From a virus: 64,000 nucleotides of DNA. A model generated the notes under the pieces. It was not told the origin of the DNA. It made no database searches and was given only the letters and a program-made list of their open reading frames with translations. The stretch is taken from positions 47,180-111,179 of IMG/VR virus record IMGVR_UViG_3300045049_000234. One strand, given 5' to 3'. Both the position numbers and the translations under genes were made by a program. Positions within the stretch are counted from its first letter, which is position 1, and every line of letters begins with the position of its first letter. Shown one piece after another: positions 7,845 to 59,981 of the stretch.

Positions 7845-8531
7845 CTAGACTACGGCGTCCACGTTAGCGTTGTCAAGGGGATCGGCCTGCGAAGTCATCC
7901 GCATTCGCCTGCCCAGTTCGATCCATGCGTGCCGTGGCCACATCGTGCGGCACCCACGGCACTGGATCTTCTGCGCGTACGGGTCCGCCCACAGCGACGT
8001 CCCGCACACCATCCCGTCGTCCGCCGTCTGCGGGCACATCCCGATCATCCGTGACTCGCCGGGACCGTTGACCTGAACGCGGCACGCCGCCGCCCACTCC
8101 CGGATGTTCGCCGCGAACGCGTCCGCCTCGGCGTGCTCATCCGCCGCCCACGTCCAGTTGTTGCGCAGGAACGTCACCGCGCCGACCACCGACTGCTGCA
8201 CCGTCCCCCGGAACGGTCGCGCCGTCCATCCGAGCACCATGCGCCAGTCCGATTCCCAGTAGTGCAGGACGCTGACGATGCCGCCGTGCGCCCGCAGGCT
8301 CAGCGGCTCCAGCCGAACCGGCACCGGCGATCCCACGCGCCCCCCGCCGGACACGCGGGCGTCGGTGCGCATCCCCCACGACGGTTCCAGCATCTCCCCC
8401 AACGCCTCGTACAGCGCCGGTATCGCCGTCAGGTCGGCGTCCACGTGCGCGATGCACAGGCCGCACACGCGGCGGGTGGACGATCGGCGGCAGATCATGC
8501 ACTGGACGGACACGGGCTGGTCAGTGAGCAC
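7845..8531 (-). CDS. Hypothetical protein with two zinc-binding clusters
   Basis: 228 residues, GTG start. N-terminal CMIC...CGLC (residues 11-26) and C-terminal CPQ...C...CRGC (residues ~163-190) could each form a zinc knuckle. Between them is a region with VLGWTARPF that resembles actinophage proteins I cannot name. The stop TAG lies in the -10 region of the promoter at 7847. A long inverted repeat covers its start codon. Confidence 0.7.
   Translation of the reverse strand: MLTDQPVSVQCMICRRSSTRRVCGLCIAHVDADLTAIPALYEALGEMLEPSWGMRTDARVSGGGRVGSPVPVRLEPLSLRAHGGIVSVLHYWESDWRMVLGWTARPFRGTVQQSVVGAVTFLRNNWTWAADEHAEADAFAANIREWAAACRVQVNGPGESRMIGMCPQTADDGMVCGTSLWADPYAQKIQCRGCRTMWPRHAWIELGRRMRMTSQADPLDNANVDAVV
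7847..7876 (-). promoter_or_regulatory. Promoter TTGACA-18-TAGTCT
   Basis: Lies in the 3' end of the preceding zinc-protein gene; spacer begins ACGCTAAC. Drives the 7448-7816 gene. Confidence 0.72.
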
Positions 8532-8571
8532 GGCGCCCCCTCATGGTGTTTTTTATGAGGGTAGCGCCGTG
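8529..8571 (-). promoter_or_regulatory. Long inverted repeat over a start codon
   Basis: CACGGCGC and CCCTCAT pair with ATGAGGG and GCGCCGTG around a T-rich loop. The arm nearest the gene includes the GTG start at 8531. Could be a terminator for transcription from the repeat region, or a translational block. Confidence 0.55.
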
Positions 8572-8572
8572 C

Positions 8573-9700
8573 ATCCATGCCTTGCGCAACGATGCCGAGG
8601 CCAGCGCCGCCATGCCGGGCTCGGCCGTGCCGTGCCACGTCGTGCGGGCAACCACCGACTAGCCGGTGACCACCCGCACGACACGGAACCATGCGTTGCC
8701 AAGCCGCGCGCTGCGCTGCCGAGCCGTTACCTAGCCGGGCCAAGTACCGCCATGCGAAGCCGGACCATGCCGGGCACTGCGTAGCGCCGCCTCGCGTGCG
8801 CGCCGGGGCCTCGAACCCCGGTGACATCCGGTCGCGCGCCATCCATGCCGTGCCGAGACAGGCCGCGCGTTGCACTGCCTAGCCCGGCCGTCCACCGTCC
8901 GTGCCTTGCCGTACCTCGCCATGCGCCGCCACGCCGGACTGAGCCCAGTTCTGCCGAGCATGGGAACCTTGCCGCGCCTCGCATTGCCAAGCCGAGCGAT
9001 GCCCGGTCTGGCCACGCGTCGCCCCGCCGCGACCCCACGGCGGGGTTGTCCTTGCGTTGCCGAGCCACGCCACGCCTAACCAGGCCACGCCGCGCACAGC
9101 CGCGCCCCGACCCCAGAGCGCGGGTATCCGTGCCTTGCCCCGCGTAGTCATGCGTCACCTTGCCACACGGTGCGGCGCCAAGCCATGCATTGCCCGGCCG
9201 GGTCGTGCCGTGCGCAGCTATGCCGAGCGCAGCGCAGCCCAGGGACGGCACGCGGTGGTCCCGCGTACCAACCTTGGGTTGCGCCCTCGCCGCTCGGCCA
9301 TACCCCGCCTAGCATGGCCGAGCGGCGCCGTGCGGCGTCCATGCCTTGCCTGGCGTTGCCACGCCAGTGCCGCGCTCAGCCGAGCGATGCCGGGGCCAGC
9401 CCTGCCATCGCCTCTGCCCAGCCAAGACAGCGACACACCGGTGATGTGCCACCGCCCCGGCTGGGTCCGTGCCTCGCCGCGCGGAGCCAAACCGGGCCAA
9501 ACGTTGCCGGGTCGTGCCCCACCATGCCGCGACCCCACGACATGACGTCCATGCCTAGCCACGCCAGACCTCGCACAGCATCGCCTAGCGTCGCCAGGTC
9601 CTTGCCAAGCCGGGTCGCGCCGCGCTACGTCCAGCGTTGCCGTGCGCTGCCGCGCCGGGCGTTGCGTTGCCACGCCATCGCATCGCGAAGCCAGGCCACG
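8573..9700. repeat. Degenerate pentanucleotide repeat tract (NNGCC / GGCNN)
   Basis: About 1.1 kb without a credible gene. Read in steps of five, the plus strand is roughly NNGCC (TTGCC, AAGCC, CCGCC, ATGCC, TGGCC), with occasional phase slips and substitutions. Long open frames on both strands are by-products: 5 bp against 3-bp codons gives spurious 5-residue periodic proteins rich in Gly, Ala, Arg and Trp. The same pattern recurs at 10863-10978 and 11050-11097. Confidence 0.85.
8641..8680. terminator. Hairpin inside the pentamer tract
   Basis: CGTGCGGG pairs with CCCGCACG, with an inner CACCG/CGGTG helix. It interrupts the 5-bp register close to the downstream (minus-strand) end of the tract and may end a transcript crossing it. 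Confidence 0.5.
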
Positions 9701-22796: not shown

Positions 22797-24287
22797 GTGG
22801 CCATGCACGAAATCGCAGTCGGCAACATCCCCCCGGCGCTCGCGGCGCTCCTGGTGAGCGGCGGCGTGGTGGGGACGCCGGTGACCGGCGACGACATCAA
22901 GTTCCACAAGGGCAAGGACATCGTCCTGCCGGAGGGGTCCACCTACGAGTGGGCCATCGACACGCTGGAGCGCAAGAAGACGGAGCAGGAGACCGTCATC
23001 TCCTTCCAGCGCGTCTACCCGTTCCGCCCGGACGACGGCGCGCACGCCGTGGCGGCGGTCCTGAAATCCAAGTACGGCGTCACGATCGGCAAGCCCACGC
23101 CGGGATTCTTCTCCTCCCGCCCGCCGGAGCTGCGCGCCATCGCCGTCGGGTTCGGCAAGACCGAACAGGTCCCGTGGGGCAAGATCGAGATCCCGTCGCT
23201 CCAGAGCGCCGAGATCACGCTGCACGAGACCAGCCAGGGCAACGGCCCGGTGTTCGCCGTGTCGGTGCAGGCGGCGCGCAAGTTCAAGGAGGAGATCGAG
23301 TCACTGTTCGGCGCGATCGACGCCGAGCTGCGCGCGAACTCCATCTACCGGGGCAAGGCGCTGATCGGCGCGCACACGCTCCAGTTCTTGGACACCTCCA
23401 AGTTCGACGCCACCAAGATCGTGTTCTCGGACCTGGTGACCGACACGCTCAACGCCGCGCTGTTCGGTGCGATCAAGCACGCCGCCGCGCTCAAGCGCGA
23501 CGGCGTCCCGATCAAGCGCTCCGTCCTGCTCTACGGCCCGTACGGGACCGGCAAGTCCTCCGTCGGGATGATGACGGCGCAGGTCGCTGAGATGAACGGG
23601 TTCACCTTCCTCCAGGCGCGCACCGGCGTGGACTCGCTGGAAGACGTCCTGAAGACCGCGCAGCTCTACCAGCCCGCCGTCGTGTTCGTGGAGGACATCG
23701 ACGGTCCGGCGTCGGTGAGCGACGCGCAGGACGTGGCCAAAATGCTGGAGGCGTTCGACGGCGTGGCCGCCAAGGACTCCCAGATCATCATGGTCGTGAC
23801 CACCAACCACATCGACCGCATCCACGCGGGCATGCTGCGCCCCGGCCGCCTGGACTACATCGTGGAAATCAACAAGCTGGACCGCAGCGGAACCGAACGC
23901 CTGCTGCGCGTCCTGCTGGGCGACAAGCTGGACCGGCATGTGGACTTCGACGCGGTGTTCGCGGAGATGACGGACTTCGAGCCCGCGTTCGCCCGCGCCA
24001 CCGCCGACCGCGCCGCCACGTGGGCCATCGCCCGCACCGGCGGCAAGGGCTCGTACAAGCTCGCCACCGCCGATCTGGTCGGCGCCGCGCGCTCGCTGCA
24101 CCCGCAGCTCAAGCGCTTGCGCGAGGCGTCCGAGGGCATCCCGGCGCCGCAGATCGAGACGGCGCTGGCGGACCTGACCACCAAGGCCGCGCAGGAGGCG
24201 GTCCTGGGCCTGCGCCTGGAGGACGCGTACGGCGACGTGACCCACACGGTCGTGATGCCGGAGCTGAACGGCGCGTCCGCGTCGTAG
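22797..24287 (+). CDS. AAA+ ATPase (FtsH/Cdc48-like)
   Basis: 496 residues from GTG (ATG two codons on). The N-terminal ~220 residues are a separate domain. Then LLYGPYGTGKSS is Walker A (~residue 245), VVFVEDID is Walker B (~300), VVTTNH the sensor-1 and LRPGRLD the arginine-finger region. The C-terminal helical lid includes an Arg/Ala-rich stretch. Such ATPases remodel proteins. A vWA protein three genes on recalls MoxR/CbbQ-type AAA+–vWA pairs, but order and subfamily differ. Substrate unknown. Confidence 0.85.
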   Translation: MAMHEIAVGNIPPALAALLVSGGVVGTPVTGDDIKFHKGKDIVLPEGSTYEWAIDTLERKKTEQETVISFQRVYPFRPDDGAHAVAAVLKSKYGVTIGKPTPGFFSSRPPELRAIAVGFGKTEQVPWGKIEIPSLQSAEITLHETSQGNGPVFAVSVQAARKFKEEIESLFGAIDAELRANSIYRGKALIGAHTLQFLDTSKFDATKIVFSDLVTDTLNAALFGAIKHAAALKRDGVPIKRSVLLYGPYGTGKSSVGMMTAQVAEMNGFTFLQARTGVDSLEDVLKTAQLYQPAVVFVEDIDGPASVSDAQDVAKMLEAFDGVAAKDSQIIMVVTTNHIDRIHAGMLRPGRLDYIVEINKLDRSGTERLLRVLLGDKLDRHVDFDAVFAEMTDFEPAFARATADRAATWAIARTGGKGSYKLATADLVGAARSLHPQLKRLREASEGIPAPQIETALADLTTKAAQEAVLGLRLEDAYGDVTHTVVMPELNGASAS

Positions 24288-25306: not shown

Positions 25307-25352
25307 CCACCTCCCCACGTGTTCCAGATCAACCGCAAGGAGCTTCACCGCG

Positions 25353-26024
25353 ATGACTGATCCGCATTACGCCCACGTGTTCCTCGTCGCCGACCGGTCC
25401 GGATCGATGGCCGACTGCCGCGAGGCCACGCAGGACGGCATCAACGAGTTCTTCAACGGGCAGAAGACGGTCCCCGGCAAGGTGACCGCATCCCTGTTCC
25501 AGTTCGACGACCACCACGACACCGTGTTCGAGCACCTGCCGATCGGCGACGTCCCGGCGTACGAACTGGTTCCGCGCGGCATGACGGCACTGCTGGACGC
25601 CGTCGGGTTCGCTTTCACCCGCGAGGGCGAATGGCTCGCGTCCATGCCGGAGCACGAGCGTCCTGGCATCGTCACGGCGGTGATCGCCACGGACGGCATG
25701 GAGAACCGTTCGACCGAGTGGAAGGCGGACGGCGCCGATCCCGCCTCGCGCATCCGCGCGCTGATCACCCAGCAGCGCGAGGTCTACGGATGGGAGGTGC
25801 TGTTCATCGGCGCCAACATGGACGCGATCAAGGTGGGCGGCGGGCTCGGCATCCCGGTGTCGCGCTCCATGACCTACAACACCACCGCCACGGGCACCGC
25901 ATCCACGTACGGGACGCTGTCGGCCGTCGGCGCCACCATCTCGTCCGGCGTGGCGTTCGCCGGGTTCACCGATGACCAGCGCGCCGCCGCCGTGGACCAG
26001 GCGCCCGACAAGGACGCGAAGTGA
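25353..26024 (+). CDS. von Willebrand factor A domain protein
   Basis: 223 residues. DRSGSMADC is the DxSxS metal-site motif (residues ~14-19), MTAL supplies the threonine and VIATDGMENRS the second acidic site. Compact vWA domain with nothing attached. Near the AAA+ gene; distinct from the vWA protein at 3455. Role unknown. Confidence 0.8.
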   Translation: MTDPHYAHVFLVADRSGSMADCREATQDGINEFFNGQKTVPGKVTASLFQFDDHHDTVFEHLPIGDVPAYELVPRGMTALLDAVGFAFTREGEWLASMPEHERPGIVTAVIATDGMENRSTEWKADGADPASRIRALITQQREVYGWEVLFIGANMDAIKVGGGLGIPVSRSMTYNTTATGTASTYGTLSAVGATISSGVAFAGFTDDQRAAAVDQAPDKDAK

Positions 26025-26517: not shown

Positions 26518-27099
26518 ATGGCGACGTTCCTGGGGTATGAAACCCTGCGGCTTGACGAACTGATCCCGTTCCCCGGCAACGCCCGGCGCGGCGACGTGGA
26601 CAAGATCCGCGAGTCCATCCGTGCGCACGACCAGTACCGTTCACTGGTCGTGCGCCGGACTCCCGGCGGCGATGTGATCCTGGCGGGCAACCACACAGCC
26701 CAAGCGTTGATCGCCGAAGGGCGCGCGGACGCGCGGTGCGAGGTGTTGGAATGCTCCGAATCCGACGCCATCAAAATCAACCTCATGGACAACAAAGGTT
26801 CCGACGACGCCACGAACGATGACGACGCGCTGGGCGCGTTGCTGTCAGAACTGGACGGCGACTATTTCGGCACCGGTTTCGACGAAGACGAAGCGAACAC
26901 GATCTTGGCGGCGCTCACCGCCGAGGAGTTGGCCACTACCGGCGGTGGCGACATGAACCCGTTCATCGGGGACGCCCCCGTGGACGAAATGCGCACCTCG
27001 TGGGGCGTCGTCGTCACCTGCCGGGATGAACTTCAGCAGGTCGAACTCCTCCAGCGGTTCACGGCCGAAGGGCTGTCCGTCCGCGCACTCGTGGCTTAG
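26518..27099 (+). CDS. ParB-like nuclease-domain protein
   Basis: 193 residues, ATG. LRLDELIPFPGNARRGDVDKIRESIRAHDQYRSLVVR followed by ILAGNHTAQALIAEG is the ParB/Srx fold with its DNA-binding/CTPase-like motif (GNH replacing the usual GHR). Followed after 8 nt by the ABC-ATPase/GNAT gene; ParB-fold proteins beside Mom-type enzymes recur in phages and are thought to act in DNA modification or packaging. Confidence 0.83.
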   Translation: MATFLGYETLRLDELIPFPGNARRGDVDKIRESIRAHDQYRSLVVRRTPGGDVILAGNHTAQALIAEGRADARCEVLECSESDAIKINLMDNKGSDDATNDDDALGALLSELDGDYFGTGFDEDEANTILAALTAEELATTGGGDMNPFIGDAPVDEMRTSWGVVVTCRDELQQVELLQRFTAEGLSVRALVA

Positions 27100-27107
27100 G
27101 AGCCGCC

Positions 27108-28202
27108 ATGGAATTCGATGTCACCGTAACCACCCCCGTGGCGTCCAGCCCTCGGTTGATGCAGGTGAGCAGCTTGTTCGACGTGCCGTTGGAAGAAAAG
27201 GCCACTAATTCGTGGCACGTGCGCATGCCGATCGGCGAACGACAGTGGGCGGTCGGTCTGATCACCGGGCCGTCCGGTTCCGGCAAAACCTCGGTGGCCC
27301 GCCACGTGTGGCCGGACGCGGTCGCCCGCGTGCCGACGTGGTCGCCCACGGACGCGTTGGTGGACGGCTTCCCGGCCGGTATGTCGATCAAGGACATCAC
27401 GGGCATGCTCACCGGCGTGGGATTGTCGTCCACCCCGGCATGGTTGCGCCCTTATCACACGCTTTCGAACGGCGAGATGTTCCGCGCCGACGTGGCGCGT
27501 ACGTTGGCTGACACGCCTTCCGGATCGTTGTGCGTGATCGACGAATTCACCAGTTTCGTGGATCGGCAGGTGGCCCGCGTAGCGTCGCACACCACGCAGA
27601 AAGTGGTGCGCCGCACTGACCGCCAGCTCGTAGCGGTCACGTGCCATTACGACGTGATCGACTGGCTACAGCCCGATTGGGTCTTGGACATGGCGGACGG
27701 CTCGTTCACCTGGAGGTCGGTTCAACCCCGCCCCAGGATCGACCTCAGCATTCACCGGGTCGGCCGCGAAACGTGGTCCGTGTTTGCACGTCATCACTAT
27801 CTGAGCAGTTTCCTGTCTCCGGCGGCGCAATGTTTCGGCGCGTTCACCGACACCGGGGCCATGGTGGCGTTCACGTCATACTTGCACTTCCCACACCCCA
27901 ACACCAAGAACCTGAAAATGGCGCATCGCATCGTGGTGTTGCCGGACTATCAAGGGCTGGGGATCTCGTTGCCGTTGTCGCAATGGGTCGGCGAATACCT
28001 ATGGTCGCAGGGGAAGCGCTACCGGATCACCACGGCGCACCCGGCGATGATCAATGCCCTCGCGAGGTCGCCCCGCTGGCGCCACGTGTCGGAGCAAAAC
28101 ACCCACCGCAGCGTCCACGTGAAGACGTCCGCCATGCCTTCGAGGCACATGAACCCCCGGCACATGGGGACGCGGTCGTTCGAGTACTGCCCCATGGCCT
28201 AG
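27108..28202 (+). CDS. ABC-type ATPase fused to Mom-like GNAT domain (putative DNA hypermodification)
   Basis: 364 residues. Residues ~45-200 are an ABC ATPase: Walker A GPSGSGKTS, signature-like LSNGEMFRADVARTLA, Walker B LCVIDEFTS, and CHYDVIDWL. Residues ~210-364 look like a GNAT domain: WSVFARHHYLSS, AFTSYLHFPHPN, RIVVLPDYQGLGIS. The latter pattern is that of the phage Mu Mom family, which modifies adenines in phage DNA to block host restriction. It has an upstream ParB partner. Reaction not proved by sequence. Confidence 0.75.
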   Translation: MEFDVTVTTPVASSPRLMQVSSLFDVPLEEKATNSWHVRMPIGERQWAVGLITGPSGSGKTSVARHVWPDAVARVPTWSPTDALVDGFPAGMSIKDITGMLTGVGLSSTPAWLRPYHTLSNGEMFRADVARTLADTPSGSLCVIDEFTSFVDRQVARVASHTTQKVVRRTDRQLVAVTCHYDVIDWLQPDWVLDMADGSFTWRSVQPRPRIDLSIHRVGRETWSVFARHHYLSSFLSPAAQCFGAFTDTGAMVAFTSYLHFPHPNTKNLKMAHRIVVLPDYQGLGISLPLSQWVGEYLWSQGKRYRITTAHPAMINALARSPRWRHVSEQNTHRSVHVKTSAMPSRHMNPRHMGTRSFEYCPMA

Positions 28203-43890: not shown

Positions 43891-44186
43891 ACGCGCACGA
43901 GCGGCTGTACGTGATCGCGGGAACGTACCGGGAGTACTTGGACTGGTGCGCCGATCTGCCGATCGGCCGCAACGATCCGCGCGTGCGGTGCGTGCTCGAT
44001 TCCTGGGCGTTGCAAGGCGCGCCGCGCGGTCTGTGGTACATCAAGATCGGAACATGGGAACGCTGGTCCAGCCGGGCGCACATCGATGAGATGCTGTACT
44101 GCTGCGAAGCCCGCGACGCGGACGCGGCCATGGGTCGGATGGGCTCGGAGCGGAGATCGGCTGTAAACCGGTTGCCATCGGCATAG
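43887..44186 (+). CDS. Hypothetical protein whose end overlaps a tRNA gene
   Basis: 99 residues, GTG overlapping the previous stop. The last 18 codons lie inside tRNA-Tyr, so the C terminus (MGRMGSERRSAVNRLPSA) is encoded by tRNA sequence. The first ~80 residues (YREYLDWCADLPIGRNDPRVRCVLDSW) look genuine. Either the original stop was lost or the gene tolerates the overlap. Confidence 0.6.
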   Translation: MNAHERLYVIAGTYREYLDWCADLPIGRNDPRVRCVLDSWALQGAPRGLWYIKIGTWERWSSRAHIDEMLYCCEARDADAAMGRMGSERRSAVNRLPSA

Positions 44187-44210
44187 CAGGTTCGACACCT
44201 GCCCGACCCA
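44132..44210 (+). tRNA. tRNA-Tyr(GTA)
   Basis: Acceptor GGGTCGG/CCGACCC, anticodon arm ATCGG-CTGTAAA-CCGGT, long variable arm TGCC/GGCA, T arm GCAGG-TTCGACA-CCTGC, discriminator A. No CCA is encoded. D arm is weaker. Followed by CGCGGAGGAACC, the ribosome site of the next gene. Confidence 0.85.
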
Positions 44211-44223
44211 CGCGGAGGAACCA

Positions 44224-49012: not shown

Positions 49013-49603
49013 ATGCCGTCATCCCCACACCCCGACGTCACCGAACGGCGCGCCAAGGTCATCGCCCGCATCTCGCGCGGCATCCCGCCCGGCATCGTCG
49101 CCAGGGAACTGGGCGTGTCCGCCGACGTCGTCCGCCAAGACCTCCACCGCGAACTGGCCAGGCGCAAGCAGGAACTTGACGAATACCGCGACCTGCTCAT
49201 CGCCCAGCAAGTCGAAGAACTCGACCAGGTCCGCATGATGGCGTGGAAACACGCGATGATGCGCCACTACCACGTCAGCCAGTCCGGCGCGATCACCAAG
49301 GACCCCGATACCGGGCAGCCCCTGCTGGACACCGGCCCCAACGACCGCGCGCTGGCGCTGGTGGTCAAGGCGCAGGAACGCCTGTCCAAGCTGCTGGCAC
49401 TGGACGAGGCCAAGAAGATCGAAGTAAAGGCGGAGGTGGTCAGCGTTGAAGCCTTCCGGGGAACCGTCGAACAGCTCCGAGAAGCCGTCGCGCGAGAACG
49501 AGCTGCTAGCGGAGGCGGAATCGCTGCTGGCGGAGTACCTGGCCTTACAGCAGGAACTGGCGAGCCTGCGAGCCGGACGATACCCGGAGAACTTCCGTCC
49601 TAA
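49013..49603 (+). CDS. terS: Terminase small subunit
   Basis: 196 residues, ATG after AAAGGGGGGCAC. N-terminal HTH (RISRGIPPGIVARELGVSADVVRQDLHREL, residues ~15-45), a helical middle and position directly before TerL identify it as the DNA-recognition subunit that picks the packaging site. The last ~50 residues overlap the TerL start in another frame and are low-complexity. Confidence 0.82.
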   Translation: MPSSPHPDVTERRAKVIARISRGIPPGIVARELGVSADVVRQDLHRELARRKQELDEYRDLLIAQQVEELDQVRMMAWKHAMMRHYHVSQSGAITKDPDTGQPLLDTGPNDRALALVVKAQERLSKLLALDEAKKIEVKAEVVSVEAFRGTVEQLREAVARERAASGGGIAAGGVPGLTAGTGEPASRTIPGELPS

Positions 49604-50918
49604 GCAGCTCCCCCCGGACCACCCGCAGCACCACCTGCCCGACGCCAAGGGGTTCGCCTGCGGATGCAGCGGCGGGGACGACGCGTACAACATCTGGCTG
49701 CTGCTCTCCGGCCGTGGATTCGGCAAGTCGCTGGTCGGCTCCACGTGGCTGGTGCGCCAGGCGCTGACGCATCCCGGCAGCGAGTGGGCGGTGTTCGCGC
49801 CGACGTTCCGCGACGTGCGCAAGACGTGCATCGAAGGCAGCACCGGCATCCTGGCGGCGATCGGGGAGGGGCAGCTCGGCAACTACCGGCGCAACGAGTT
49901 GCAGATCACGCTGGCCAACGGCTCGGTGATCTACGGCTACTCGGCTGACCAGCCGGACCGCGCGAGAGGCGCGAACCTGTGGGGCGCGTGGTGCGACGAG
50001 CTGTGCGCCTGGCGGTATGAGACCACCTGGCATGAGGGTCTGGTGCCCGCGCTGCGCAAGGGCGAGAAGCCGCGCATCGTGGTCACCACGACCCCCCGCC
50101 CCACGAAACTGATCAAGGACCTGCTGGGCCGCAACGACGGCAGCGTGCACGTCACGCGCGGGTCCACGTGGGAGAACGCGGCGAACCTGTCGGCCACCGC
50201 GCTGCTGGAACTCAAGCGCCGGTACGAGGGCACCCGCCTTGGGCGCCAGGAGCTTGAAGGCGAGGTGCTGGAGGACATCGAGGGCGCGCTGTGGCAGCGC
50301 AGCCTGATCGACGCCGACCGCGTCAAGCCCTCGGACGTGCCGGACCTGTCCCGGATCGTGGTGGCCATCGATCCGGCCGTCACCTCCACCGAGGACAGCG
50401 ACGAATCGGGAATCGTGGTGGTGGGCTACTCCGGTGACCACGGCTACGTGCTGGGCGACTACTCGCTGCAAGGCACGCCGAACGAGGTGATCAACAAGGC
50501 GATCCACGCCTACCACGCGCACAGCGCGGACGTGATCGTGGCGGAGGTCAACAACGGCGGCGACTGGATCGGCAGCCTGCTGCGGACGGTGAACACGAAC
50601 ATCCCGTACGACACGGTCCGCGCCAGTCGCGGCAAGGCGATCCGCGCGGAGCCGGTCAGCTCCCTGTACGAGCAGCACCGGATGCACCACGTGGGCAGCT
50701 TCCCGGAGCTGGAGGACCAGATGTGCGGGTTCGTGCCGGGCGTCAAGGACGATTCGCCGGACCGGATGGACGCGCTGGTGTGGGCGACCACGGCGCTGAC
50801 GGGCATCGTGGCGGGGGACTGGAACGACGCGTACGGCACGGTGAAGTGCTTCACATGCGGCCACACGTACGTGCTCAAGGCGCACGAGAAGTGCCCGAAG
50901 TGCGGCACGATGAATTGA
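49446..50918 (+). CDS. terL: Terminase large subunit
   Basis: 490 residues from TTG 49446 (CGGAGGTGG precedes), overlapping terS by 158 nt. Walker A LLSGRGFGKS (~residue 86), Walker B-like WCDELCAW (~185), VVTTTPRP coupling motif (~217), then the nuclease domain with VVAIDPAVTS (~307), AEVNNGGDW (~365) and SPDRMDALVWA (~436). The end is unusual: CFTCGHTYVLKAHEKCPKCG forms a zinc ribbon after the nuclease. It drives DNA packaging. No portal gene follows. Confidence 0.95.
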   Translation: MKPSGEPSNSSEKPSRENELLAEAESLLAEYLALQQELASLRAGRYPENFRPKQLPPDHPQHHLPDAKGFACGCSGGDDAYNIWLLLSGRGFGKSLVGSTWLVRQALTHPGSEWAVFAPTFRDVRKTCIEGSTGILAAIGEGQLGNYRRNELQITLANGSVIYGYSADQPDRARGANLWGAWCDELCAWRYETTWHEGLVPALRKGEKPRIVVTTTPRPTKLIKDLLGRNDGSVHVTRGSTWENAANLSATALLELKRRYEGTRLGRQELEGEVLEDIEGALWQRSLIDADRVKPSDVPDLSRIVVAIDPAVTSTEDSDESGIVVVGYSGDHGYVLGDYSLQGTPNEVINKAIHAYHAHSADVIVAEVNNGGDWIGSLLRTVNTNIPYDTVRASRGKAIRAEPVSSLYEQHRMHHVGSFPELEDQMCGFVPGVKDDSPDRMDALVWATTALTGIVAGDWNDAYGTVKCFTCGHTYVLKAHEKCPKCGTMN

Positions 50919-59002: not shown

Positions 59003-59094
59003 GATGGGTCCTCCGTTCACGTGTCAGCGCCCCCGGCAAGGTCATCCGATTACCGACCGGGGGCGCCGTGATGCGCGGTTTCCGTCACGCATCG

Positions 59095-59168
59095 CACCGG
59101 CGGCAGGACTCGAACCTGCGACTCTGAGATTCGTAATCTCAAGCTCTTTCCAGCTGAGCTACGCCGGT
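59095..59168 (-). tRNA. tRNA-Arg(ACG)
   Basis: Acceptor ACCGGCG/CGCCGGT, D arm GCTC/GAGC, anticodon arm TGAGA-TTACGAA-TCTCA, T arm GCAGG-TTCGAGT-CCTGC, discriminator G. No encoded CCA. Confidence 0.93.
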
Positions 59169-59286
59169 TAGCGGCGGGATGCTTCTTCCGGACGAACCGA
59201 CGCTCACGCGAGGACCCGCCTGCAACCCGCCTGCCACACGCGGCACCGGCTTCCAGGGGCAGCCGTACTGGTGCGTTGCGTGGTCG

Positions 59287-59360
59287 TCGCCCCGAGTGGA
59301 ATTGAACCACCGGCCTTTCCCTTATCAGGGGAACGCTCTGACCAACTGAGCTACGGGGCA
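59287..59360 (-). tRNA. tRNA-Ile(GAT)
   Basis: Acceptor TGCCCCG/CGGGGCG (U-G first pair), D arm GCTC/GAGC, anticodon arm TTCCC-CTGATAA-GGGAA, T arm GGTGG-TTCAATT-CCACT. No encoded CCA. The 118 nt to tRNA-Arg hold no convincing gene. Confidence 0.93.
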
Positions 59361-59468
59361 TTGCGGGTGCGCTTTCGAAACAACGAGGTGCGCACCGCTG
59401 ACGCGGGAGGACTGCCATCCTGCCCCGCGCCCCGAGACGAGCGCTGGCAGGCGCCTGTCTCTACCTCG

Positions 59469-59540
59469 CTCCCGATCGAGGATTCGAACCTCGTATGCCG
59501 CGTCCAGAGCGCGGCGTGTTGCCGATTACACCAACCGGGA
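59469..59540 (-). tRNA. tRNA-Gln(CTG)
   Basis: Acceptor TCCCGGT/ATCGGGA, anticodon arm CCGCG-CTCTGGA-CGCGG, T arm CGAGG-TTCGAAT-CCTCG. No encoded CCA. The gap to tRNA-Ile (108 nt) shows no convincing gene. Confidence 0.9.
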
Positions 59541-59640
59541 TCGGTTGTCCTACACGTCCTGTTTCACCCACCGGCCGTTGTGGCGGACCTCCACCACCAC
59601 GTCCGGCGAACCGCCCACGGGCCAAGAGGCGGCGGTGCCC

Positions 59641-59771
59641 TAGTGGAACCGGGGGGAGTCGAACCCCGTGCGCGCGCTCGTGGCTACCCGCCACGGCCGA
59701 TCCCATGGTGGTCGGTCTTTCAGCGCACACGTGCCCGGGACGCGTCCGGGTTTGGTGCCGACCAAGCGCCG
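59641..59771 (-). other. Orphan T arm / tRNA remnant
   Basis: GGGG-TTCGACT-CCCC followed by CCGGTTCCACT has the look of a tRNA or tmRNA 3' end. GTGGC-GGGTA-GCCAC just before it could be a variable arm. No complementary 5' acceptor strand (GGAACCGG type) is found up to tRNA-Val, so it cannot fold as a complete tRNA. The next 100 nt toward tRNA-Gln may encode a 22-residue peptide from a GTG ending GRWVKQDV. Confidence 0.4.
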
Positions 59772-59844
59772 TAGGCCCACGAGGACTCGAACCTCGAACC
59801 CGCTGCTTGTAAGGCAGCCGCTCTCCCAATTGAGCTATAGGCCC
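59772..59844 (-). tRNA. tRNA-Val(TAC)
   Basis: Acceptor GGGCCTA/TGGGCCT, D arm GCTC/GAGC, anticodon arm GCTGC-CTTACAA-GCAGC, T arm CGAGG-TTCGAGT-CCTCG. No encoded CCA. Confidence 0.92.
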
Positions 59845-59908
59845 AGGTCACCGGACACAGCCATGGCCTAACGCCGGTGCCTTAGTCGTGAAGTTGTCAA
59901 ACAGTCAG

Positions 59909-59981
59909 TTGCGGAGACGGGAGTCGAACCCGCAAATGCAAGGGTTATGAGCCCTCCGGCTTACCGTTGGCCTACTCCGCG
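59909..59981 (-). tRNA. tRNA-Met(CAT), initiator-like
   Basis: Acceptor CGCGGAG/CTCCGCA with an unpaired C1-A72, anticodon arm GAGGG-CTCATAA-CCCTT with three G-C pairs next to the loop, T arm GCGGG-TTCGACT-CCCGT. Both features mark bacterial initiator tRNA. D arm GGC/GCC. No encoded CCA. Confidence 0.88.

What the first reader, a model, noticed from the sequence alone, without database searches (positions are those of the whole stretch)
26518..28202. ParB-like protein plus ABC-ATPase/GNAT fusion: candidate DNA hypermodification pair
The second gene joins an ABC ATPase (GPSGSGKTS, LCVIDEFTS) to a GNAT segment with RIVVLPDYQGLGIS, reminiscent of the Mom protein that modifies adenine in phage Mu. 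The ParB-like gene ends 8 nt before. ParB-fold and Mom-like genes are discussed together in surveys of phage DNA modification. If active, phage DNA would resist restriction.
Basis: partly seen in the sequence, partly recalled or inferred. Interest (0 to 1): 0.72.

Follow-up and report, generated by a model that had tools for sequence, protein, structure and literature searches.

The report
Phage ParB-guided ABC-acetyltransferase, probable DNA modifier
A virus of high-GC bacteria carries a two-gene unit, a ParB-like adaptor and an ATP-driven acyltransferase, that gene neighbourhoods strongly suggest decorates viral DNA so that bacteria cannot cut it; the enzyme type was predicted before, but I found no report that it has been shown to work.

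Summary
In detail: a 193-aa ParB-like gene (26518-27099) and, 8 nt on, a 364-aa ABC ATPase-GNAT fusion (27108-28202). AlphaFold gives a confident two-domain model; both active sites are invariant among 58 relatives. The enzyme is not a Mom-family member: Mom's Pfam model does not match it, and the profile comparison with Mom is weak (both carry an invariant His-Tyr). It belongs to the ABC-coupled GNAT family that Aravind's group predicted to acylate DNA bases.

New support comes from the ParB partner. ParB lies beside the ABC-GNAT in 76 of 80 viral loci. In a ParB-centred sample, ParBs partner almost only with DNA-modification enzymes: 49 of 80 fused to N6/N4 methyltransferases, 12 beside ABC-GNAT, 8 beside Mom, others beside D12 methyltransferase or TET-associated glycosyltransferase. 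Partner swaps are frequent (at least 13 on the ParB tree), and the ParB tail changes with the partner each time. The ABC-GNAT-type tail also occurs as a free peptide before ABC-GNAT in two ParB-less phages, and one genome fuses ParB, tail, ABC and GNAT.

Best reading: ParB plus tail delivers an ATP-gated acyltransferase to phage DNA. The modification itself is untested. New member of a predicted kind; the adaptor logic I did not find described.

The parts
26518..27099 (+). ParB-like adaptor gene, 193 aa: N-terminal ParB/CTPase-fold domain (about residues 1-125) and partner-type tail
   Evidence: phrog_723 E 4e-36; profile A2 of its family matches Noc, Spo0J and ParB in the PDB; position of the phosphate-motif Arg is Thr here (Arg or Thr in the family: 47/14 in ABC-GNAT-partnered, 27/15 in Mom-partnered ParBs)
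26998..27096 (+). C-terminal tail of the ParB (residues 161-193), the tail type found with ABC-GNAT partners
   Evidence: aligned tail in the 9 ParBs of A2; a tail HMM built from 61 ABC-GNAT-partnered ParBs including this one hits 12 of 12 ABC-GNAT-partnered and 0 of 68 other ParBs of the ParB-centred set
27108..28202 (+). ABC ATPase-GNAT fusion, 364 aa
   Evidence: phrog_11143 E 4e-96; AF2 model pLDDT 91.9
27108..27716 (+). ABC ATPase domain, residues 1-203: Walker A G54-S56-G57-G59-K60, signature L119-S120-G122, Walker B D145-E146, H-loop H180
   Evidence: these residues invariant in 58 of 58 aligned proteins; VIA Z about 14-15 to ABC ATPases
27732..28199 (+). GNAT domain, residues 209-364: invariant H230-Y231, R274, V276, P279, Q282-G283, G285
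   Evidence: invariant in 58 of 58; domain modelled alone, pLDDT 88.8; Z 14.8 to 1y9k, 14.4 to RimI
27100..27107 (+). 8-nt gap between the genes (most relatives overlap by 1 to 25 nt instead)
   Evidence: distances

Best explanation
The pair is a phage DNA-modification unit. The ABC-GNAT is the enzyme: its ABC domain dimerises on ATP, as ABC ATPases do, and gates access to DNA; its GNAT domain moves an acyl group from acyl-CoA to an exocyclic amine of a DNA base (adenine N6, cytosine N4 or guanine N2). The ParB-like protein is the delivery factor: its N-terminal ParB fold binds DNA and perhaps a nucleotide, and its C-terminal tail docks the ABC-GNAT. The modified phage DNA then escapes host restriction. 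Shown here: the two folds (as confident models), intact active-site motifs, the conserved pairing, the exchange of partner enzymes on one ParB chassis, the tail that follows the partner, and natural fusion of all parts in one ORF. Inferred: DNA as substrate, the acyl group, docking by the tail, the role of ATP, protection from restriction.
For: Both catalytic sites invariant in 58 of 58. ParB close upstream in 76 of 80 viral loci, 72 of them within 25 nt, 53 of 57 after clustering. Same ParB family beside true Mom (PF25680, E 4e-61) in 76 of 80 loci. Slot swap: Arthrobacter phages Sonny and EastWest share gp68/73 (64%), ParB N-domain (57%), DNA-binding protein (80%) and clamp (45%) around Mom in one and ABC-GNAT in the other. 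ParB-centred sample of 80: 49 fused to PF01555 methyltransferase, 12 ABC-GNAT and 8 Mom beside, 1 PF01555, 2 D12 methyltransferase, 2 TAGT beside. Tail follows partner in 13 of 13 independent pairs, p 0.00024. Stand-alone tail peptide directly before ABC-GNAT in two ParB-less phages. ParB-tail-ABC-GNAT in one ORF of a Gemmataceae MAG. Family member QAX98348.1, named in PMC7824862 as a predicted base acylator, is matched at 36.8% and E 4e-56.
Against: No modified base seen. The closest solved GNATs include protein acetyltransferases (RimI, Naa50). 8 of 17 phage loci examined lack a full ParB, so ParB is not essential to the family. Pairing counts rest on sets seeded from this protein. The tail abuts the enzyme gene, so the two could move together by linkage alone. 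This ParB has Thr where the phosphate-motif Arg usually sits, so NTP use is doubtful.
Confidence: 0.66

Rival explanations
1. Protein acetyltransferase: the GNAT acetylates a host or phage protein (RNA polymerase, ribosomal or DNA-binding protein) to redirect the host, with ABC and ParB as regulators.
For: Nearest solved folds are RimI, Naa50 and other amine or N-terminal acetyltransferases. PMC7824862 and PMC5512222 describe phage GNATs predicted to modify proteins (passages seen).
Against: The ParB partner otherwise goes with DNA methyltransferases, Mom and a TET-associated glycosyltransferase, and ABC-GNAT takes Mom's slot.
Confidence: 0.14
2. DNA replication or packaging factor: ParB and ABC-GNAT act in segregation, nicking or terminase loading, with any acyl mark serving that step.
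For: Often a few genes before the terminase (Sisko, LE4, Pmp13, P335, MismyG; prophages L220 and L221). A ParB-methyltransferase, BCE_0392, showed DNA nicking-associated concatenation (PMC3459991, passage).
Against: In the window the terminase is 21 kb away (49428-50915); in EastWest, pT24 and 9184 the neighbours are not packaging genes. BCE_0392 also makes m6A.
Confidence: 0.1
3. Restriction-like or toxin unit: ParB nicks unmodified DNA while ABC-GNAT marks self, or the GNAT is a toxin held by ParB.
For: ParB-fold proteins with nuclease activity are reviewed in PMC5512222; jumbo-phage Mom domains are fused to endonucleases (PMC7824862).
Against: No nuclease or antitoxin-like gene is constant in the neighbourhoods read; in 2 of 17 phages only the ParB tail is kept.
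Confidence: 0.06

Closest known systems
ABC ATPase-coupled GNAT, predicted DNA-base acylation system (Iyer 2013, paper not held; restated in PMC7824862, passages read)
   Same: Homologous protein: QAX98348.1 and the pT24 locus, both named there, are tblastn hits of P0002; same ABC+GNAT architecture.
   Different: The jumbo-phage members fetched lack ParB; the window's is ParB-paired with the tail. The 2021 passage does not mention ParB.
Mom of phage Mu (PF25680, PDB 8bv8 'Methylcarbamoylase mom')
   Same: GNAT superfamily; invariant His-Tyr in the same place (H58-Y59 in Mom, H230-Y231 here); in many phages the same ParB partner and once the same genomic slot.
   Different: No Pfam Mom match, weak profile score; extra ABC domain; the ParB tail is a CxxC ribbon with Mom, another type here.
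ParB-methyltransferase fusions of phages (phrog_498, PF02195+PF01555; BCE_0392)
   Same: Same ParB N-domain (phrog_498 matches P0001 at 7e-20).
   Different: Enzyme is a SAM methyltransferase in one polypeptide instead of a separate acyltransferase.
ParB-CTPase fold survey, PNAS 2025 (PMC12704722, passages read)
   Same: Reports ParB fused to phage methyltransferases and one bacterial ParB-acetyltransferase fusion that binds GTP.
   Different: 'GNAT' has 0 occurrences in its main text; ABC-GNAT pairing and partner-typed tails are not in the passages I read.

Membership tests
ABC ATPase-coupled GNAT (predicted base-acylating family, PMC7824862) | ABC ATPase domain with Walker A, signature, Walker B and H-loop | tested here: met
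   invariant in 58 of 58; fold match
ABC ATPase-coupled GNAT (predicted base-acylating family, PMC7824862) | GNAT domain with acyl-CoA motif A, fused to or beside the ABC | tested here: met
   PF00583 22.5 bits on the domain; fold match
ABC ATPase-coupled GNAT (predicted base-acylating family, PMC7824862) | Homology to the named members | tested here: met
   QAX98348.1 in AsFcp_2 36.8%, E 4e-56; pT24 36.4%, E 1e-52
ABC ATPase-coupled GNAT (predicted base-acylating family, PMC7824862) | Acyl modification of a DNA base | not testable with these tools
   needs LC-MS; not shown for any member in the passages read
Mom (PF25680) | Match to the Pfam Mom model above 27.1 bits | tested here: not met
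   no Mom match at E <= 10; 1 of 58 GNAT domains, E 0.027
Mom (PF25680) | Closest solved fold is Mom 8bv8 | tested here: inconclusive
   8bv8 exists; the rows shown do not settle it
Mom (PF25680) | His-Tyr in the N-terminal helix region (H58-Y59) | tested here: met
   H230-Y231 invariant; aligned by hhalign; role of the residues in Mom is recalled, not read
Mom (PF25680) | Makes the Mom adenine modification | not testable with these tools
   needs LC-MS of virion DNA
ParB/Srx fold proteins | Profile match to ParB | tested here: met
   phrog_723 E 4e-36; family profile hits Noc 7nfu E 5e-13
ParB/Srx fold proteins | Conserved Arg of the phosphate motif | tested here: not met
   Thr at this position; 29 of 103 family rows share Thr
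Chromosome or plasmid partition ParB | Match to TIGR00180 and the HTH/dimerisation architecture | tested here: not met
   TIGR00180 11.5 bits against cut-off 58.45; 193 aa with another tail

The most novel reading that the evidence does not exclude
Phages use one exchangeable ParB-fold chassis as a universal delivery clamp for DNA-modifying enzymes, with partner-specific tails as plugs: methyltransferases by fusion, Mom by a CxxC ribbon, ABC-GNAT by a short tail that can act even as a 42-49 aa free peptide. The ABC-GNAT then makes an ATP-gated acyl mark on DNA that is chemically unknown today.
Probability: 0.4. Interest if true: 0.8.

Novelty: new member of a known kind. Interest (0 to 1): 0.55.

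Why it matters
A DNA-acylating ATPase-GNAT was predicted over a decade ago and, in the papers I could search, has not been tested. The partner swaps give that prediction independent support and name cultured phages in which it can be tested at once: EastWest against Sonny (same slot, ABC-GNAT against Mom), Jace, Sisko, LE4, P335. If true it adds an anti-restriction base modification and a general adaptor rule that would explain many ParB genes annotated as partition proteins or nucleases in phages.

Tried and rejected
Mom membership: rejected on Pfam and profile evidence. Mom's structure 8bv8 does not appear among the rows shown; that absence is told here only and proves nothing.

ABC transporter: rejected, because the NCBIfam transporter hits are far below their cut-offs and the ABC domain is followed directly by a GNAT.

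Canonical partition ParB: rejected (TIGR00180 far below cut-off).

Tail as a feature of all ParBs without a fused methyltransferase: rejected. D12-methyltransferase-partnered ParBs L316 and L358 have a tail that looks similar by eye, but the tail HMM does not hit them at E 1e-3. My first regex for the tail caught only 68 of 77 viral and 52 of 62 genome ParBs; the HMM replaced it.

Formyltransferase (PF00551) as a general part: found beside ABC-GNAT only in Sisko, Komp_PAO1_1 and Porphyromonas phage007a among the 98 viral and phage loci plus 80 genome loci searched.

Led nowhere: ParB scan with P0001 (no relatives); ParB scan with the Sonny ParB (6 loci, not used further); COG2401, recalled as 'ABC ATPase fused to acetyltransferase' (0 papers); megablast for the phage's identity (no match); Mom search in the own genome (control rang nowhere, so inconclusive).

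Rows dropped before counts: L001 (copy of the window); Komp L006 from the ParB tree; rows with over 35 gaps and rows over 80% identical (163 to 103 rows); five long-branch rows for the careful tree (103 to 98). With all 103 rows: 7 of 7 pairs, p 0.016.

Full report
OBSERVATION. The window holds, on the + strand, a 193-aa ParB-like ORF (26518-27099) and 8 nt later a 364-aa ORF (27108-28202). The first matches phrog_723 (ParB-like, E 4e-36), the second phrog_11143 (unknown function, E 4e-96). The window is part of a 111,179-base virus record with one copy of the gene, 68% G+C in the window, with no near relative among 50,697 phage records for the 12 kb around the pair. A terminase lies at 49428-50915. 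No N6/N4 methyltransferase (PF01555) was found in the record.

ANATOMY. The second protein is an ABC ATPase joined to a GNAT. The AlphaFold2 model has mean pLDDT 91.9 and pTM 0.86; residues 1-203 align with ABC ATPases (1f3o MJ0796, Z 14.8, rmsd 3.2, 181 aligned) and 209-363 with the GNAT 1y9k (Z 14.6, rmsd 3.5, 133 aligned). In 58 aligned relatives Walker A, signature, Walker B with catalytic Glu, H-loop, GNAT R274-x-V276...P279..Q282-G283-x-G285 and H230-Y231 are invariant. Both halves are therefore probably active. The GNAT domain modelled alone (pLDDT 88.8) is closest to ordinary GNATs: 1y9k Z 14.8, RimI 14.4, Naa50 13.9, which are tied within 1.

SPREAD. tblastn finds it in 78 of 50,697 phage records, all under 60% identity. 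I read 17 of those 78 loci: fused in 11, split into adjacent ORFs in 6 (Lactococcus P335, Javan523, MismyG, TR-TP2, 9184, and pT24, where the break falls inside the GNAT). Relatives lie in Streptomyces and Nonomuraea (55-60% identity), planctomycetes and others (425 relatives, 80 kept); two of these loci that I checked look like prophages, with terminase and portal genes downstream.

PAIRING WITH ParB. In the 80 viral-contig loci kept of 215 relatives, a ParB lies within 1 kb upstream on the same strand in 76, in 72 of them within 25 nt, commonly overlapping by 22 nt (37 loci) or 4 nt (13); 53 of 57 after 85% clustering. In 80 genome loci, 62 by a strict rule; a tail-bearing ParB ORF lies next to ABC-GNAT in 67 of 80 and elsewhere in the locus in 9, one of which is the fusion described below. 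Against: of the 17 phage loci, only 9 have ParB directly upstream; 8 do not. The viral and genome sets are seeded from this protein or its profile and favour its near kin.

THE SAME ParB GOES WITH OTHER DNA-MODIFYING ENZYMES. Mom-like genes of Arthrobacter phage Sonny and Microbacterium phage Antuna match Pfam Mom (PF25680, E 4e-61 and 1e-46) and have a ParB beside them. Of 80 viral loci around Sonny-type Mom (80 kept of 357), 76 have ParB within 800 nt; 3 of the 4 others lack room at a contig end; of 32 loci around Mu-type Mom, none has. Sonny and EastWest show a swap in place: gp68/gp73 64% identical, ParB 57% over the N-terminal 118 aa only, DNA-binding protein 80%, sliding clamp 45%, gp74/gp80 32%; between ParB and the DNA-binding gene one has Mom, the other ABC-GNAT. 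Sampling by ParB instead of by enzyme (Pasteurella phage Pmp13 ParB, itself ABC-GNAT-partnered; 80 kept of 591 relatives): 49 of 80 ParB ORFs carry PF01555; 12 have ABC-GNAT and 8 Mom beside them; of seven unclear loci checked, the neighbour was PF01555 in 1 (L334), D12 methyltransferase in 2 (L316, L358), TET-associated glycosyltransferase in 2 (L318, L348, the latter followed by a Tet/JBP-like oxygenase just under its cut-off), a PLP enzyme in 1 (L324), and a terminase small subunit in 1 (L371, whose ParB ORF ends in a methyltransferase-like stretch). One ParB is fused to DUF4417 and a few are unresolved. So at least 74 of 80 sit with an enzyme of DNA modification, counting ABC-GNAT as one, or 62 of 80 leaving ABC-GNAT out.

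THE TAIL FOLLOWS THE PARTNER. Mom-partnered ParBs end in a CxxC ribbon (76 of 76), ABC-GNAT-partnered ones never do (0 of 77 viral, 0 of 62 genome); in the ParB-centred set 7 of 8 Mom-partnered do (L356 is the exception). On a tree of the ParB N-domain (98 rows, 108 columns, many forks unresolved) the two partner classes interleave, with at least 13 changes forced by supported branches; in 13 of 13 independent pairs the tail changes with the partner (p 0.00024; 7 of 7, p 0.016, on the quick tree of 103 rows). The window's own ParB groups (99/99) with two Mom-partnered and one other ABC-GNAT-partnered ParB, nearest L175 at 51%. A 42-position tail HMM from 61 ABC-GNAT-partnered ParBs hits 12 of the 80 ParB-centred loci, exactly the 12 with ABC-GNAT, and no ORF of the Mom loci. 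At least one ParB-centred contig is also in the training set (that of L095 and L321), so the samples are not wholly independent. In two ParB-less phages the ORF that overlaps the start of ABC-GNAT is the tail alone: Komp_PAO1_1, 49 aa, E 1.4e-9, and Porphyromonas phage007a, 42 aa, E 2.7e-4. Six other ParB-less phage loci (L008, L012, L013, L014, L016, L017) show no tail. In a Gemmataceae MAG one 613-aa ORF carries ParB (59-225, with tail at 191-221) and ABC-GNAT (247-566). Linkage could explain part of the tail pattern, because the tail abuts the enzyme gene; the free tail and the full fusion favour a functional link.

MECHANISM. Best reading (0.66): ParB binds phage DNA, its tail holds the ABC-GNAT, ATP closes the ABC dimer on DNA, and the GNAT acylates a base amine; restriction enzymes then fail. 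Only folds, motifs, pairing and swaps are shown. NTP use by this ParB is doubtful, as Thr replaces the usual phosphate-motif Arg; Thr occurs in 29 of 103 family rows.

AGAINST THE KNOWN. PMC7824862 (passages) says that a GNAT coupled with an ABC ATPase was predicted to make an uncharacterised acyl modification of a nucleobase, citing a 2013 paper that the library does not hold; its example accession QAX98348.1 is listed as an AsFcp_2 protein, and both AsFcp_2 and pT24 are hits of this protein. So the kind is in print. Mom membership fails; a shared invariant His-Tyr is suggestive only, with no control GNAT family compared. PMC12704722 (passages) reports ParB fused to phage methyltransferases and one ParB-acetyltransferase fusion binding GTP. 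PMC3459991 (passages) reports that the ParB-methyltransferase BCE_0392 makes m6A, and cites nicking. I found no paper on ParB pairing with Mom or ABC-GNAT or on partner-typed tails in the searches (listings, and passages of the papers named); the library lacks most subscription papers, and the 2013 paper may contain part of it.

Noticed in passing
L007:4876-5004 (Porphyromonas phage007a_Bg4) and L006:4855-5004 (Pseudomonas phage Komp_PAO1_1): Small ORFs annotated 'acr candidate protein' or hypothetical are stand-alone copies of the ABC-GNAT-type ParB tail, overlapping the ABC-GNAT start.
   Followed up: yes
L005:1814-2464, L006:6113-6730, L007:6131-6604: A formyltransferase-fold gene (PF00551) lies directly after ABC-GNAT in one subgroup (one copy is annotated tRNA-methyltransferase), hinting at a different or further processed acyl group.
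   Followed up: partly
L002:6101-6526 (Jace): Aspartate decarboxylase (PF02261, E 2e-33), a beta-alanine/CoA-pathway enzyme, 14 nt after ABC-GNAT.
   Followed up: no
L020:5986-7092 and 8029-9252 (also L021-L025, L028): Two ABC-GNAT ORFs about 0.9 kb apart in one set of related viral contigs.
   Followed up: no
L348:2989-5131: ParB, TET-associated glycosyltransferase and a Tet/JBP-like oxygenase in a row.
   Followed up: no
window 22797-24287: AAA ATPase gene (PF00004, E 3e-15; phrog_10440 unknown function, E 5e-78) upstream of the pair.
   Followed up: no
window 25350-26024: Protein of phrog_7371 (unknown function, E 5e-53); its N-terminus reads like a von Willebrand A domain (FLVADRSGSM; motif recognised from memory).
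   Followed up: no
window 59094-59981 (-) and 44132-44211 (+): Cluster of five tRNA genes and a separate tRNA-Tyr in the phage.
   Followed up: no
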